Shown here: piece after piece, positions 36,199 through 42,079 of the stretch
Numbering within the stretch: the stretch's first letter is position 1
Layout: every line of letters starts with the position of its first letter
Source of the DNA: Solirubrobacter phytolaccae
GTDB lineage: Bacteria > Actinomycetota > Thermoleophilia > Solirubrobacterales > Solirubrobacteraceae
Reading direction: 5' to 3'
Length of the DNA stretch: 64,000 nt
Assembly: GCF_027587195.1 (NCBI RefSeq)
Contig: NZ_JAPDDP010000031.1
Coordinates: forward strand, 1-64,000
The notes under the pieces: generated by a model
What the model was told of the DNA's origin: nothing
What the model saw: the letters and a program-made list of their open reading frames with translations, nothing else
Database searches by the model: none
Translations under genes and position numbers: made by a program

Positions 36199-38001
36199 AT
36201 GCGCGCAACGCGCATCGCGGTGCTGGCCGCTGTCGGCGTCGCGGCGGCCGGGGCGACGGGGGTCGCCGTCGGCCAGTCCGGGCCGGACAAGAGCGCCGCC
36301 CTGAAGGCTTCGGTGGACATCTCGAAGCCGAAGAACATCATCCTGTTCATCGGTGACGGCATGGGCGATTCCGAGGTCACCTCGGGCCGCTACTACGCCA
36401 AGGGCGCCGCTGGCCGCCTGAACATGGACGCGCTGCCCTTCCGCGGCGACGTCACGACCTACAACGTCGGGCCGGCGGCCGCTGCGCCGTACCCGCCCAA
36501 CTACGTGCCGGACTCCGCGCCGACCGCGGCCGCGTGGTCGAGCGGCATCAAGACGCTCGACGGCCGTCTGGGCCAGGGCCCGTCCTCGGGCGTCACCGTC
36601 CCGGGCACGAACTACGAGACCTACATGGAGATCGCCAAGAAGCGCGGGCTCTCCACGGGCAACGTCTCCACCGCGGAGATCACGGACGCCACGCCGGCCG
36701 GCCCGTCGGCGCACATCTCCCAGCGTGGTTGCCAGGGCCCGAACGACACGCGCAGCGCGTGCCCGACGGAGACCAAGGCGGCCGGTGGCCTCGGCTCGAT
36801 CGCCGAGCAGCAGGCCGACAACCAGTTCGATGTCGTCCTGGGTGGCGGCCGCGCTCGGTACGCGCAGCCGCTCGAGGCCGGTGGCACGACGAACGTCATC
36901 GACTACGCCAAGACCAAGGGCTACAAGTACGTTGCCACCGAGGCCGAGCTGGCCAGTGTGACGTCGCTGGCGGCGGGCGAGCGGCTGCTCGGCCTGTTCC
37001 ACGACTCGAACATGACGACCGAGTACCAGCCGCTGATCGCGTCTGACACCGGCGCCGGTTCGGCGACCACCAAGTGCCAGCCGTCCAACCGCGGCACCGA
37101 GCCCACGCTGGCCGAGATGACCGACAAGGCCATCAAGCTCCTCGAGGGCAACCAGAAGGGCTTCGTGCTCCAGGTCGAGGGCGCCTCGATCGACAAGCGC
37201 GATCACGCGTCCGACGCGTGCGGCCAGATCGGCGAGCTCATCGGCATGGACGACGCCATCGGCATCGCCCAGCAGTTCCAGAAGACGCACCCGGACACGC
37301 TGATCGTCGTCAGCGCCGATCACTCGCACACGAGCCAGATCATCGGGCCGACCACGGTTCCGCGCGGCCAGTACACGACCCTGCAGACCGTCGACGGCGC
37401 GCCGATCCGCATCTCCTACGGCACCGCCGCGATCGCCGGCTCCCAGTCCCACACGGGCGCCACCGTCCCGGTCTTCGCGTCGGGCCCGCGTGCCGCTGAC
37501 GTGACCGGCACGATCGACCAGACCGAGCTGTTCCCGGTCCTCACCAACACCCAGACCGGCAACGGTCCGGCCACCTCGACCCCGGTCGGCGGCGACGTCG
37601 GCGGTGCCGTTCCGGCCACCCTGTCGCTCACCGTCGGCGCTCCCGCGTCGTTCCCGGCCTTCGTGCCGGGCGTGGCGAAGGACTACACCGCCGGGATGCT
37701 GGCGGACGTCGTCTCCACCGCGGGCGTCGCGAACCTGTCGATCGCCGACGCCGGCACGACCGCTCCGGGCAAGCTCGTGAACGGCACCTTCGCGCTGGAG
37801 CAGCCGCTCCAGGCTCGTGCGAAGGACGGCGCCTTCGCGTCGCTCGGCGCCACTCCCCTGGGCCTGCTGACCTACACCGGCCCGGTCTCCAACGACCGCG
37901 TGTCGATCGACTTCAAGCAGTCGATCGGCGCCAACGAGCCGCTGCGCACCGGCACTTACGCCAAGACGCTCACGCTCACGCTCTCCACGACCACCCCGTA
38001 G
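36199..38001 (+). CDS. phoA: Secreted alkaline phosphatase, PhoA type
   Basis: A 600-residue exported phosphomonoesterase. Residues 1-25 are a signal peptide (AVLAAVGVAAAGATGVAVG). The enzyme domain shows the first metal site IILFIGDGMGDSEVTSGR, the nucleophile serine in YVPDSAPTAAAWSSG, VVLGGGRARYA, VLQVEGASIDKRDHASDA for zinc and magnesium binding, and the late VVSADHSHTSQI and GSQSHTGATVPVFASGP histidines. After about residue 465 an additional domain of about 130 residues, Thr/Ser/Ala-rich, lies outside the usual PhoA fold and may attach to the wall or to substrate. The likely role is phosphate scavenging. A possible Pho box and a strong Shine-Dalgarno precede it. Confidence 0.94.
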   Translation: MRATRIAVLAAVGVAAAGATGVAVGQSGPDKSAALKASVDISKPKNIILFIGDGMGDSEVTSGRYYAKGAAGRLNMDALPFRGDVTTYNVGPAAAAPYPPNYVPDSAPTAAAWSSGIKTLDGRLGQGPSSGVTVPGTNYETYMEIAKKRGLSTGNVSTAEITDATPAGPSAHISQRGCQGPNDTRSACPTETKAAGGLGSIAEQQADNQFDVVLGGGRARYAQPLEAGGTTNVIDYAKTKGYKYVATEAELASVTSLAAGERLLGLFHDSNMTTEYQPLIASDTGAGSATTKCQPSNRGTEPTLAEMTDKAIKLLEGNQKGFVLQVEGASIDKRDHASDACGQIGELIGMDDAIGIAQQFQKTHPDTLIVVSADHSHTSQIIGPTTVPRGQYTTLQTVDGAPIRISYGTAAIAGSQSHTGATVPVFASGPRAADVTGTIDQTELFPVLTNTQTGNGPATSTPVGGDVGGAVPATLSLTVGAPASFPAFVPGVAKDYTAGMLADVVSTAGVANLSIADAGTTAPGKLVNGTFALEQPLQARAKDGAFASLGATPLGLLTYTGPVSNDRVSIDFKQSIGANEPLRTGTYAKTLTLTLSTTTP

Positions 38002-38007
38002 CACCGA

Positions 38008-38045
38008 CGCCGCGCCGGCCGCCCTTGCGGGTGGCCGGCGCGGCG
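38008..38045. terminator. Strong hairpin after phoA, probable bidirectional terminator
   Basis: Perfect 13-base arms at 38008-38020 and 38033-38045 (CGCCGCGCCGGCC and its complement) are extended inside by four more pairs (one G-T) to leave a TTGC loop. The hairpin sits between the phoA stop and the end of the convergent DNRLRE gene. No T-run follows on either side, as is common for actinobacterial terminators. Confidence 0.65.
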
Positions 38046-38056
38046 CGGGGTCGCCA

Positions 38057-38624
38057 TCACGGCACGTAGTAGTCCACGTCGAGGACGATGTCCGAGACCT
38101 CGATCGCATGGTCGGCCGGCGCGGGCGCTCCGGGGATCGCGAGCCCGACGCCGTAGTTGTCGAGCGCGCCACTGACCCACGCGGCGACCAGCGCGGTGAC
38201 GTCCCGCCGGGTCGCTCCAGGCGTTGTTGCCGGGGGCCTCGAACGTGTTCCACTCCGACCCGTAGTCGCCGCCGACGTTCGACCACGGCCACAGCCAGTC
38301 CGCGCTGCTGTCCCAGTCGGTGATGACGTCCAGGATCGAGACGACCTTGGGATCGGTGCCGAGCTCGTTGGTCTGATACACGCTCAGCGTCGCGTCGGTG
38401 ACGACCGCGTTCGACGGAATCGCGCTGAGCCCGTCGAAGCGAGCGATCGTGATCTGGGTCGTGTTCCCCACCGTGTTCGGCGGGAAGTTGGCGTCGACCT
38501 CCCCGATCCAGCCGCCGCCTGCGCACTGATTCGACGGCGGGTACTCGATCAACCAGCACGACGTGTGCGCACTTGCCTTCTTGATTGGACCAGGAGTGAG
38601 AACTGCTATGCCGGCGGTGAGCAT
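38057..38624 (-). pseudogene. Frameshifted DNRLRE-domain surface protein gene
   Basis: The first frame from ATG 38624 (TTG 38636 also possible) encodes a domain with TTQITIARFDGLSAIPSNAV, TDATLSVYQTNE, ITDWDSSADWLWPW and NTFEAPGNNAWSDP, the beta-sandwich DNRLRE type found in secreted proteins of actinobacteria. At about 38201-38205 the reading must change frame. The other frame continues DVTALVAAWVSGALDNYGVG, then IEVSDIVLDVDYYVP and a stop at 38057. One extra G (or two missing bases) in a G-rich run explains it. It may be real decay or a sequencing error. The N-terminus holds no clear signal peptide, so the 5' part may be lost as well. Confidence 0.72.
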
Positions 38625-38758
38625 CGAACCATTCAACGCATACTAAGTCAACGTTCGTGTGCTGACACGTGTAACCGTCTGGCGTGTGGCGTGGCGTTCA
38701 GCTCAGGTGGCGCGCGGCGGGCTGAGTGCGCGTCGGGGAGCACACCCGCGGCCGCCGC

Positions 38759-38819
38759 GTCAAGCAATTCGTGCCCCGGCGGTCGCGAGTTCTGCGGCGG
38801 TCGTCACGAATGGCTTGAC
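38759..38819. repeat. Inverted repeat, 15-bp arms
   Basis: Left arm GTCAAGCAATTCGTG (38759-38773) and right arm CACGAATGGCTTGAC (38805-38819) pair at 14 of 15 positions around a 31-nt loop. GTCAAGC/GCTTGAC at its ends recalls the CTTGAC within the palindrome at 39127-39206. No target-site duplication is evident. Confidence 0.6.
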
Positions 38820-38897
38820 CCGTCGGGGCGGGTGCGCTCTTGTGCGGGTGAGCGGCTGCGCCGGAGTGCGCCCGGGCGCGGGCCGCGCGCTCGTGCG

Positions 38898-39042
38898 TGA
38901 TCCGTCAGTTGACGCCCGTGGGGGGCGTTAAGTGACGGATCACGGGAGCGATCCGTCAGTTGACCCCCGCACAGGGGGTCAAGTGACGGATGACGGGAGC
39001 GATCCGTCAGTTGGGGCCTTGTGGGGGCCCAAAGTGACGGAT
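38898..39042. repeat. Three tandem 51-bp hairpin repeats with covarying inner stems
   Basis: Units start at 38899, 38950 and 39001, an exact 51-bp period. Each begins GATCCGTCAGTTG and ends AAGTGACGGAT, so the outer 8 bp (ATCCGTCA/TGACGGAT) pair perfectly, with one unpaired G on each side. The inner stem differs between units but stays paired: GACGCCC/GGGCGTT, GACCCCC/GGGGGTC and GGGCC/GGCCC types. Linkers are CGGGAGC-like. Because the right arm of one unit can also pair with the left arm of the next, alternative folding is possible. No open frame crosses it convincingly. Confidence 0.85.
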
Positions 39043-39126
39043 GCCGCGCGTCTGGGTGGCAATGGCGTGTTGGCCCGTGTGCGCGGGCGCTTTCCGGCGC
39101 AGCCGGCTCATTGGGACGTCAGCGCA

Positions 39127-39206
39127 GCGGCGCCGGGCCTGTCAAGCCCGACCCGAAGGGCGGCGAAGCCGTCGCGCAGCGATCGCCTTGACAGGCCCGG
39201 CGCCGC
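39127..39206. repeat. Palindrome with perfect 20-bp arms
   Basis: Left arm 39127-39146 (GCGGCGCCGGGCCTGTCAAG) and right arm 39187-39206 are exact reverse complements, around a 40-nt centre that has smaller hairpins. It could be a mobile repeated palindromic element, a strong RNA hairpin, or a terminator. Confidence 0.75.
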
Positions 39207-39234
39207 GGAGCTACCCGAGTGCGGCGACGTGACC

Positions 39235-39440
39235 CGTGCGGGGCGCGCGGCGCGCCACGGCGGCGCGCGCCACGGCACGACGCCACGGCACGACACGACG
39301 GCACGACGGCACGGCACGGCGCCGCGGGACGGCATGCCACTGCGGGGCGGCGCAGAACGGCACGCGGCGGCGGTACGGGACGACATGGTGGCGCGGGACG
39401 ACAGGCGCCAGGGCGACGGCGCGGCGCGGCGCCATGAGTG
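39235..39440. repeat. Low-complexity short tandem repeats
   Basis: Irregular repeats of GGCACGAC, CACGGCG and GGCGCG units. They create open frames on both strands that read as Arg/His/Gly/Thr strings and are not proteins. Confidence 0.55.
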
Positions 39441-39505
39441 GCAACGTGCCAACTCGCGAAACTCGGCTCAAGGTTTCGGGCCGTGCTGCCGATGACATGA
39501 AGTAG

Positions 39506-39526
39506 ACCGCCCGCCGAGGCGGTTTT
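39506..39526 (+). terminator. Terminator-like hairpin with T-run
   Basis: ACCGCC (39506-39511) pairs with GGCGGT (39518-39523) around CGCCGA. The run continues TTT then CGCGTTT on the + strand. It lies 10 bp beyond the end of the radical SAM gene, so it may also stop - strand transcripts, although the T-run favours + strand transcription out of the hairpin patch. Confidence 0.5.
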
Positions 39527-39533
39527 CGCGTTT

Positions 39534-41507
39534 CTAGAACAGGGTCTCCTGCTTCACGCGGGGGACGGTCGGAAGCAGCGGTGGCGGCTGGCGGCGGGTG
39601 ATGCCGCCGCGGTGGCGACGGTACGGGTCCATGTCCGTGCGGGGGTTGAGCCACGGGACGCCGGCGGCCAGCTCGATCTTGTGGCGTTCCGGGGGTGAGA
39701 GGCGGGAGCCCTTCGCGTAGAGGCGCTCGTAGCGCGGGACGAGGTCTGGGCGGTAGTCGCGCAGCCAGTCCATGAAGATGCGGCGGACCGCGGTGGACAG
39801 GAACAGGGTCTGGCCGCCGATGTAGGTCGCGCCCGCCTCCGTGGCCATCTCGACGATCTTCTCGACCTGCTCGGGAGCGTCGTTGATGCCCGGGATGAGC
39901 GGGGCCATCAGGACGCCGGTGGGGATGCCGTTGCGGTTGAGCTCGGCCACCGCCTCCAGGCGTGCACGTGGGTGCGGCGTGTGCGGCTCGGTGGCGCGCC
40001 AGGCCTTCTCGTCCAGCGTCGGCACGGACAGGCAGGCGCTGATGTCGGTGACCGCGGCGATCTCCTTCATCAGGTCTAGATCGCGCAGCAGCAGTGGCGA
40101 CTTGGTGAGGATGGAGCACGGGTTCTCCGCGTCGCGCAGCGCTTCCCAGATGCCGCGCATGAGCTTGTAGCGGCCCTCGACCCACTGGTAGGGGTCCGTG
40201 TTCGTGCCCAGCGCGACGGTCTCCCCCGTCCAGGACGGCCGGCGCAGCTCCGCGCGCAGCACCTCGGGCACGTTGACCTTGACGACGATCTCACGCTCGA
40301 AGTCTCGGCCCGCGTCCAGCTCCAGGTACTCGTGCGTCGGGCGGGCGAAGCAGTTGTGGCTGACCACGCCGTTGGCGATGAAGTCGCCCGTGCCGGTCGT
40401 GATGTCGAACATCGGCATGTCGATGCCGAGCCGTTCCACCGATGTGACGCGCAGCGCGCCCGGGAACTTCACCGCGCGCCCCTCGACCGTGCAGCGACGC
40501 CGGATCGCCGGACCGACCGTGTGGAAGAACCGCAGATGCTCCCCAGCGTCACCGAGCACTCGCACCGTCCGCGCGTCCTCCGAGACGGAATGGAACCCGA
40601 GCACCCGCAGGCTGTCCGCCGCGCGGCGCAGCACGGCCGGGTCGGAGTTCGCGAGCCGCAGCGCTTCGCCGCTCGAGCCGTCCGCGTCGAACACGCCCGC
40701 CAGGAACCCCTTGCACCACTCGGGGCTCGCGTCCCACGGCCACGCGAGCACGTGCCGCATCGACTCCGCCGACGGGCGCGCCACGCGCATCTCTCGATAG
40801 CCCGCGACGGCCGCCGCGCTCATCGTCAGCCCCAGCTCGGCCAGGTAGAGCTCCACGCGCTCCAAGGCCTCACGCCCGGCCGGCGTGAGCCGGAACAGGT
40901 GATCGTCGCCGTGCACCGCGCCGCACAGGTAGCCGCGCCGGTAGTCCGCGTCTTCCACCGGCGCCACGGCGAACTGGCCGACGCCACCGAACCGGTCTCC
41001 CACCACGAGCGTGCGGCGCCGGCCCTCACCCTCCGCGACGTACCGCCAGCCGTGGCGGGTGAGGAAGCGGTGGTCGCCGCTCGCGACCAGCTCCGTGCCG
41101 TCCTCCAACGACACGCGGTACGCGGGCTTGAGCGTCGACCAGTGCGCGAGCACCTCGGTGTGCACGTAGCGGCGGGTGCGGCCGACCCGGCGCGTGCCGT
41201 AGATGCGATCCCCCTGGCGGAGGTCGGCCAGCGCCCGCGTGCGGCCGTCCGCGAGCAGGATCTGCGTGTCCCCCGCCAGGCAGTAGACGCACGCGTGCGA
41301 GCAGCCGCGGTAGGGGTTGACGGTCCAGTTGAAGGGCAGCCGCGAGGCCGCCGGGACACGGTTGAGGGCCGACTTGGTGCGGACCTCGTGGAACCGCATG
41401 TCCAGCGCCTCCGGCGCGTCGAACCGGCGGACCACCGTGTCCCCCAGGCCGGGGAGCCGCCCGGCGTCGTCTCGCTCGATGACCTGTGATGACCAGCGCA
41501 CGAACAC
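39534..41507 (-). CDS. Rv2578c-family radical SAM protein containing an intein
   Basis: A 657-residue precursor. Residues 76-385 are an intein. The joined extein (347 residues) is an Rv2578c-like radical SAM protein, related to spore photoproduct lyase-type enzymes. After splicing the iron-sulfur motif reads GCSHACVYCFARPTHEYL. Downstream are LGTNTDPYQWVEGRYKLMRG and LMAPLIPGINDAPEQ. The third cluster cysteine is the +1 residue of the splice junction, so the enzyme cannot hold its [4Fe-4S] cluster until the intein leaves. GTG at 41507 is the best start, lying within a LexA-type palindrome, with a second site just upstream. A DNA-repair or nucleic-acid role is inferred from this. The gene follows the GNAT gene by 41 bp. 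Confidence 0.9.
   Translation of the reverse strand: MFVRWSSQVIERDDAGRLPGLGDTVVRRFDAPEALDMRFHEVRTKSALNRVPAASRLPFNWTVNPYRGCSHACVYCLAGDTQILLADGRTRALADLRQGDRIYGTRRVGRTRRYVHTEVLAHWSTLKPAYRVSLEDGTELVASGDHRFLTRHGWRYVAEGEGRRRTLVVGDRFGGVGQFAVAPVEDADYRRGYLCGAVHGDDHLFRLTPAGREALERVELYLAELGLTMSAAAVAGYREMRVARPSAESMRHVLAWPWDASPEWCKGFLAGVFDADGSSGEALRLANSDPAVLRRAADSLRVLGFHSVSEDARTVRVLGDAGEHLRFFHTVGPAIRRRCTVEGRAVKFPGALRVTSVERLGIDMPMFDITTGTGDFIANGVVSHNCFARPTHEYLELDAGRDFEREIVVKVNVPEVLRAELRRPSWTGETVALGTNTDPYQWVEGRYKLMRGIWEALRDAENPCSILTKSPLLLRDLDLMKEIAAVTDISACLSVPTLDEKAWRATEPHTPHPRARLEAVAELNRNGIPTGVLMAPLIPGINDAPEQVEKIVEMATEAGATYIGGQTLFLSTAVRRIFMDWLRDYRPDLVPRYERLYAKGSRLSPPERHKIELAAGVPWLNPRTDMDPYRRHRGGITRRQPPPLLPTVPRVKQETLF
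40353..41282 (-). other. Intein with LAGLIDADG endonuclease domain (within the radical SAM gene)
   Basis: A 310-residue protein intron. It begins with Cys in CLAGDTQILLADG (block A), has the block B histidine in ASGDHRFLT, and ends FDITTGTGDFIANGVVSHN (blocks F and G) with the terminal His-Asn, followed by Cys+1 in CFARP. Two dodecapeptide-like motifs, GYLCGAVHGDDH (residues about 117-128) and FLAGVFDADGSSG (about 193-205), mark a homing endonuclease. Both keep an acidic residue, so it may still cut. All splicing residues are present, so self-splicing is expected. Confidence 0.9.
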
Positions 41508-41514
41508 ATGTTCG
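41501..41514. promoter_or_regulatory. LexA-type SOS box 1 at the radical SAM start
   Basis: CGAACACATGTTCG has perfect CGAAC/GTTCG arms with a 4-base centre, matching the actinobacterial LexA consensus (GAAC, four bases, GTTC). It covers the GTG start codon of the intein-bearing radical SAM gene. Confidence 0.7.
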
Positions 41515-41534
41515 CACGGGTTGCGGACGGAATG

Positions 41535-41550
41535 TCGAACGCGTGTTCTC
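41535..41550. promoter_or_regulatory. LexA-type SOS box 2 upstream of the radical SAM gene
   Basis: TCGAACGCGTGTTCTC contains GAAC, four bases, GTTC. Its centre is 35 bp from that of site 1, and it overlaps the last codons of the GNAT gene. Two such sites in 50 bp are unlikely by chance. Confidence 0.65.
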
Positions 41551-42079
41551 AGTCGGACGGCAGCAGGCTGTAGATCACCGTGTCCCGGCGTCCACCCTTG
41601 AACGGGAGGTGCGCTCGCAGCAGCCCTTCGCGCGTGAACCCACAGCGCTCGGCGACCCGCTGGGAGGCGACGTTGTCGGGGCCGCACGTGAGCTCCAGGC
41701 GCGCGACGTCGAGCTCGTCGAACGCCCAGCGCGCGAGCAGGCGGACGGCGTGCGTGGCGACTCCGCGCCCGCGTGCGTGCGGCGCCAGCCAGTAGCCGAT
41801 CCCGGCACGGCCCTCGCAGAAGCCGTGCAAAGACACGCCTCCCAGGACGACGTCACCGACCGCCGCGAACGCGATCTGCCGACCGCAGCGGCGCGCGTCC
41901 TCCAACTCGACCAGGTGCTCCCGCGCGGCGCTCTCAGTGAGCGGCGCCCAGTCGGAGAAGCGCGCGAACACCGGATCGTGGAACGCCGCGACCATCGCCG
42001 GCACGTCGGCCTCACGCCAGGGACGCAACGTCACGCGCTCGTCGGCGAGCGGAGGGCTCGGCCACGGCAACTCGGCCAT
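41549..42079 (-). CDS. GNAT-family N-acetyltransferase (RimJ/RimL-like)
   Basis: A 176-residue acetyltransferase. It starts RVTLRPWREADVPAMVAAF, has GYWLAPHARGRGVATHAVRL for acetyl-CoA binding, and ends with LELTCGPDNVASQRVAERCG and FTREGLLR, the pattern of RimJ/RimL ribosomal-protein or small-molecule acetyltransferases. The target is unknown. It follows miaB with 11 nt between and probably shares its transcript. Confidence 0.88.
   Translation of the reverse strand: MAELPWPSPPLADERVTLRPWREADVPAMVAAFHDPVFARFSDWAPLTESAAREHLVELEDARRCGRQIAFAAVGDVVLGGVSLHGFCEGRAGIGYWLAPHARGRGVATHAVRLLARWAFDELDVARLELTCGPDNVASQRVAERCGFTREGLLRAHLPFKGGRRDTVIYSLLPSD

What the first reader, a model, noticed from the sequence alone, without database searches (positions are those of the whole stretch)
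38899..39042. Three tandem 51-bp hairpins with compensatory inner stems
The period is exactly 51 bp. Outer arms ATCCGTCA/TGACGGAT are identical in all three units, while the inner halves of the stem have changed on both sides and still pair. That is the mark of selection for structure, not sequence. Adjacent units can also pair with each other, so the array could switch folds. It is not in a gene, does not end in T-runs and does not match a CRISPR (no spacers, palindromic units), an integron site or a known terminator. Candidate roles: an RNA element, an array of six operator half-sites, a nucleoid or segregation protein site, or a remnant mobile element.
Basis: seen in the sequence. Interest (0 to 1): 0.72.

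Follow-up and report, generated by a model that had tools for sequence, protein, structure and literature searches.

The report
Mosaic hairpin repeats at gene ends
The three hairpins are the core of a roughly 600-base repeat, built from interchangeable palindromic pieces, that is scattered through this bacterium and its close relatives, mostly where two genes end facing each other; it is a new lineage-specific version of a known kind of bacterial repeat rather than a single-locus RNA.

Summary
In detail: three 41-bp hairpins with a 51-bp period lie at 38900-39042, with identical outer arms and inner stems that differ yet pair. They are not a local curiosity. The hairpin occurs at least 29 times at 20 places in this genome, and variants occur in congeners. 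Across 33 variants, 93% of pair cells still pair and 7 of 17 pairs change on both sides, one of them in the outer arm. The array is the centre of a ~600-bp composite palindrome (about 38689-39287). Its outer arms recur in dozens of copies, around centres holding one to three hairpins of at least three sequence types. Hairpins also stand alone. Elements lie mostly between convergent genes (24 of 32, against 33 of 262 other gene pairs). Two of three orthologous sites lack the element in some relative; at two sites a relative carries a different module. Best reading: a mosaic interspersed repeat comparable to BIME, BOX or NIME, made of non-autonomous palindromic modules that spread and settle at 3' gene ends. 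Whether they also stop transcription there, without a T-run, is open. No mobilising enzyme was identified; the RAYT genes present have other palindromes beside them.

The parts
38689..39287 (.). whole composite palindromic repeat element (ends approximate to about 20 bp)
   Evidence: homologous copies start near 38689 and run to about 39258-39269; self reverse-complement match of 38680-39285; fold z -13.65
38689..38899 (+). left outer arm module, repeated dozens of times in this genome and congeners, often as an inverted pair
38759..38819 (.). hairpin inside the left arm (GTCAAGCAATTCGTG...CACGAATGGCTTGAC)
   Evidence: sequence and fold; same design in other copies
38853..38877 (+). left half of the inner shell, pairs with 39081-39105
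   Evidence: 25-nt inverted repeat, 88% complementary
38900..38940 (+). type-1 hairpin unit 1
38951..38991 (+). type-1 hairpin unit 2, identical to copies on contigs C91 and C131
39002..39042 (+). type-1 hairpin unit 3
39081..39105 (-). right half of the inner shell
39043..39287 (+). right outer arm module
39121..39212 (.). hairpin inside the right arm (CTTGACAGGCCCGGCGCC arms)
   Evidence: 26-nt arms, 92% complementary

Best explanation
The array is the centre of a dispersed, modular, palindrome-within-palindrome repeat. Small symmetric modules (this 41-bp hairpin and at least two other hairpin types) and larger arm modules are copied around the genome without carrying a gene. They come to rest mainly in the short space between the 3' ends of convergent genes, where they are tolerated and where hairpins are in any case common. 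Shown: dispersal, modularity, covariation, restriction to part of one genus, presence/absence at orthologous sites and convergent location. Inferred: that they move as non-autonomous units, probably because an enzyme or a replication process recognises the folded palindrome (the GTCA-S-TT / AA-G-TGAC core is nearly invariant and keeps a G/G mismatch in most copies), and that modules insert into or replace the centre of earlier palindromes. Possible but unproven: that the transcribed hairpins stop or slow RNA polymerase from both sides.
For: 29 copies at 20 places in G000, none for the reversed control pattern. Variants in G001, G002, G004 and G006, with ATCC/GGAT changed to ATCG/CGAT in the outer stem. 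93% of pair cells paired and 7 of 17 pairs with two-sided change, against at most 49% paired when the partner is slid. Outer arms in dozens of copies, often as inverted pairs around centres with other hairpins. Lone hairpins without arms on C102, C124 and C161. Convergent context for 24 of 32 elements against 33 of 262 other adjacent pairs, Fisher p 2.7e-13; 14 of 21 in relatives and 3 of 3 in a 464-kb sample. Orthologous phoX/radical-SAM gap: short and empty in G004, element with type-2 hairpins in G002. C83 site: empty short gap in G002. C161 site: type-1 hairpin in G000, type-2-like hairpin in G001, outer-arm remnant in G002.
Against: No target-site duplication was seen and no enzyme is linked to the element. 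RAYT genes exist but are flanked by different palindromes, and one genome (G005) has RAYT with almost no element matches. The presence/absence pattern could also come from loss, gene conversion or recombination rather than transposition. Gene orientation rests on a simple codon-bias caller of my own. Only three orthologous sites were compared.
Confidence: 0.68

Rival explanations
1. Bidirectional transcription barrier: tandem GC-rich hairpins without a T-run end or slow transcription of both convergent genes; modules are interchangeable because only the fold matters, and selection keeps a hairpin at each convergent gap.
For: Convergent location. Ordinary convergent gaps lacking the element also hold strong hairpins without T-runs, z lower than in tandem gaps (p 0.0005 with n=4, p 0.0016 with n=6). 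At the C161 site different species hold different palindromes at the same place. Hairpin clusters are reported as common at termination sites and as not needing a U/A trail (PMC8355165).
Against: Very small sample of convergent gaps. No transcript data. Here a T-run terminator for the + strand already lies at 39506-39526. Congeners do without the element at the same site. [quoted passage not shown]
Confidence: 0.22
2. Selected RNA element (riboregulator or structured non-coding RNA) whose stem is maintained by compensatory mutation.
For: Covariation; very stable fold.
Against: Multi-copy, absent from close relatives at the same site, no conserved gene partner found, no Rfam match. Covariation is equally expected for a DNA palindrome.
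Confidence: 0.06
3. Binding-site array for a nucleoid, gyrase or segregation protein.
For: Near-invariant GTCA-S-TT / AA-G-TGAC core with a conserved G/G mismatch; 3' convergent sites tend to collect supercoils (PMC1525189).
Against: Patchy distribution even within the genus, with almost no match in G003 and G005, argues against a general chromosomal function.
Confidence: 0.08

Closest known systems
BOX elements of Streptococcus pneumoniae (boxA-boxBn-boxC)
   Same: Composite interspersed repeat with end modules and a variable number of inner hairpin units; over-represented between convergent genes; no gene inside (PMC3049150).
   Different: Here the centre holds different hairpin types as well as different numbers, the whole is a nested palindrome and G+C-rich; no sequence relation was tested.
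REP / BIME and the GTAG / CGTC REP superfamilies
   Same: Short intergenic palindromes in many copies, singly or clustered, at 3' ends and between convergent genes; some REPs lie inside larger palindromes (PMC3733652).
   Different: No unpaired GTAG or CGTC tag (the CGTC here is inside the stem); 41-bp fixed length; not next to the RAYT genes of these genomes.
Neisserial intergenic mosaic elements (NIME) and Correia elements
   Same: Composite intergenic repeats; Correia elements have internal sequence bounded by inverted repeats (PMC3049150 background).
   Different: Other lineage and sizes; the Correia terminal repeats are 26 bp, here the arms are about 210 bp and themselves contain hairpins.
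MITEs
   Same: Non-coding, inverted-repeat arms, strongly folded, polymorphic presence.
   Different: No target-site duplication found, no parent transposase known, not AT-rich, variable centre.

Membership tests
REP superfamily (GTAG/CGTC) | intergenic palindrome in many copies | tested here: met
   29 copies at 20 places, intergenic
REP superfamily (GTAG/CGTC) | unpaired GTAG or CGTC tag at one end | tested here: not met
   alignment A1 and fold: ends are paired, CGTC lies in the stem
RAYT-associated REP | RAYT gene flanked by the repeat | tested here: not met
   PF01797 genes in 6 of 7 genomes, flanked by CCTAAAGAGGGAC-type or other palindromes, not this one
BOX-like modular repeat | end modules with variable number of inner hairpin units | tested here: met
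   0 to 3 type-1 units between conserved arms
BOX-like modular repeat | sequence homology to pneumococcal BOX | not tested
   no BOX sequence was compared
MITE | terminal inverted repeats | tested here: met
   about 210-bp inverted arms
MITE | target-site duplication | tested here: inconclusive
   flanks inspected by eye, no clear duplication; empty-site flanks too diverged
MITE | transposase with matching ends | not tested
   only RAYT (PF01797) was examined, and it does not match
intrinsic terminator | T-run directly after the hairpin | tested here: not met
   no T-run after any unit
CRISPR | unique spacers between repeats | tested here: not met
   10-bp linkers are nearly identical, CACGGGAGCG and GACGGGAGCG
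Rfam families | score above gathering cut-off | tested here: not met
   no match in 38000-40000

The most novel reading that the evidence does not exclude
Convergent gene ends in this genus carry exchangeable hairpin cassettes: one folded module is replaced by another of unrelated sequence at the same site because only a fold is needed there, as a T-run-free two-way transcription stop, and a palindrome-recognising mechanism supplies the cassettes by inserting into the centre of existing palindromes.
Probability: 0.2. Interest if true: 0.7.

Novelty: new variant of a known kind. Interest (0 to 1): 0.42.

Why it matters
It gives a countable set of palindromic repeats with empty and differently filled orthologous sites in close relatives. 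That would allow direct tests of how gene-less palindromes spread when no RAYT is attached to them, and whether hairpins without T-runs end convergent transcription in a GC-rich bacterium.

Tried and rejected
Rfam: nothing. RAYT as the mover: the genes have other palindromes beside them and one genome has RAYT with almost no element matches. Autonomous composite element: a 6-kb contig of G004 bounded by two elements holds ordinary chromosomal genes and is most likely an assembly break. Viral spread: one viral-contig match with a different spacing, not followed. Hits of the arm pattern in unrelated phyla: read as background hairpins, apart from Herbiconiux. Arms outside the genus: only weak 34-37-bp matches. 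Published work naming Solirubrobacter with palindromes, or actinobacterial interspersed palindromes: nothing relevant in the paper library.

Full report
Observation. The window holds three 41-bp hairpins at 38900-38940, 38951-38991 and 39002-39042, spacing 51 bp. No such pattern is expected in shuffled sequence. Each folds well on its own. The stems contain an unpaired G/G at positions 9 and 33; unit 3 has one further mismatch.

Dispersal. A search of the whole assembly with up to 3 mismatches finds 29 copies at 20 places; the reversed control pattern finds none. Unit 2 is letter-identical to copies on contigs C91 and C131. Variants occur in G001, G002, G004 and G006 of the same genus; no convincing copy was found among 54 genomes from other genera of the family and order. 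From genome size and base composition I suspect a Solirubrobacter-like actinobacterium, which I did not test.

Covariation. I aligned 33 distinct 41-mers without gaps. For the 17-pair stem, 93% of cells pair; 7 pairs have two-sided changes, including C-G to G-C in the outer arm (pair 4/38) and G-C to C-G in 13 of 33 sequences at pair 15/27. Sliding the partner by one to three columns drops pairing to 49% or less. GTC, TT, AA and GTGAC are invariant. So symmetry is maintained, while a core sequence is also kept. This does not separate selection on RNA from upkeep of a DNA palindrome.

The larger element. The array sits in a ~600-bp element, about 38689-39287, that matches its own reverse complement and folds with z -13.65. 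Its outer arms match many places in G000, G002 and G004, fewer in G001 and G006, and almost none in G003 and G005. Many of these are inverted pairs about 500 bp across. Centres differ: type-1 hairpins as here; type-2 hairpins with CCACGCGAGCG-like arms; type-3 hairpins with GGGTGTGTCC-like arms. A second arm set surrounds single type-1 hairpins, and a few type-1 hairpins have no recognisable arms (C102, C124, C161). The modules therefore assort independently. Several contigs end inside the element, so counts are lower bounds.

Location. With a simple codon-bias gene caller, 24 of 32 elements with two called neighbours lie between convergent genes, 7 between tandem and 1 between divergent genes; the other adjacent pairs in the same stretches are 33 of 262 convergent (odds ratio 20.8, p 2.7e-13). 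In relatives 14 of 21 are convergent. In a 464-kb sample (400 kb of large contigs taken without regard to elements apart from leaving out stretches already fetched, plus the window) 3 of 3 are convergent. Many begin within tens of bases of a stop codon.

Orthologous sites. Between phoX (36199-38001, alkaline phosphatase) and the radical-SAM gene (39534-41687, minus strand), G004 has a short gap without an element, G002 has an element whose centre is two type-2 hairpins, and G001, G006, G003 and G005 show no element in the stretch read. At the C83 site G002 has a gap of under 100 bp between the two convergent genes where G000 has about 700 bp. At the C161 site G000 has a lone type-1 hairpin, G001 a type-2-like hairpin, G002 a joined remnant of outer arms, and G004 something unrelated. 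This shows turnover at fixed places; it does not say whether modules were inserted afresh or exchanged in place.

Mechanism. Most likely these are non-autonomous palindromic modules spread by an unidentified process and tolerated at 3' ends. [quoted passage not shown] REPs inside larger palindromes are also on record (PMC3733652), which fits nesting. RAYT is not supported as the mover. A role in ending transcription is possible: convergent gaps without the element also hold strong hairpins lacking T-runs (only 4 and 6 gaps, overlapping samples), and hairpin clusters without U-trails are described as termination sites (PMC8355165). Against it, relatives do without the element at the same site.

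Place among known things. It works like a BOX/BIME/NIME mosaic repeat. It fails the tag test for GTAG/CGTC REPs and the flanking test for RAYT-REPs. I file it as a new variant of the interspersed mosaic palindrome kind. The paper library gave no earlier description, which is weak evidence of novelty because most subscription papers are not held.

Noticed in passing
L043, L045-L046, L048, L051-L056, L059, L061-L064, L067-L068, L071, L073 (Herbiconiux): A Herbiconiux MAG (and one copy in H. ginsengi) carries about 19 copies of a 51-52-bp palindrome with the same 11-bp arms ATCCGTCASTT / AASTGACGGAT but a different body; 9 lie between convergent genes, 10 tandem, none divergent. Shared recognition or coincidence is open.
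   Followed up: partly
window 39467-39526: A sigma-28-like promoter motif (CTCAAGGTT-N12-GCCGAT) followed within about 15 bases by a T-run terminator hairpin; the same arrangement lies downstream of the radical-SAM gene in G001 (twice), G002 and G004; the motif occurs 4 times in this genome. Possibly a tiny RNA.
   Followed up: partly
window 39534-41687 (-): Radical-SAM gene interrupted by an intein with weak Intein_splicing and LAGLIDADG matches.
   Followed up: no
L087, L088, L136-L145: RAYT-type genes (PF01797) in six of seven congeners, several with their own CCTAAAGAGGGAC...GTCCCTCTTTAGG palindromes nearby.
   Followed up: partly
window 37956-38636 (-): A 226-aa reading frame between phoX and the element is absent from the same gap in G002 and G004; it looks like a secreted-protein fragment.
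   Followed up: no
window 39236-39430: Right of the element lies a low-complexity CGGCACGACGGCACGG-type stretch; similar stretches follow the element at C83 and lie in the G004 gap at C83.
   Followed up: no
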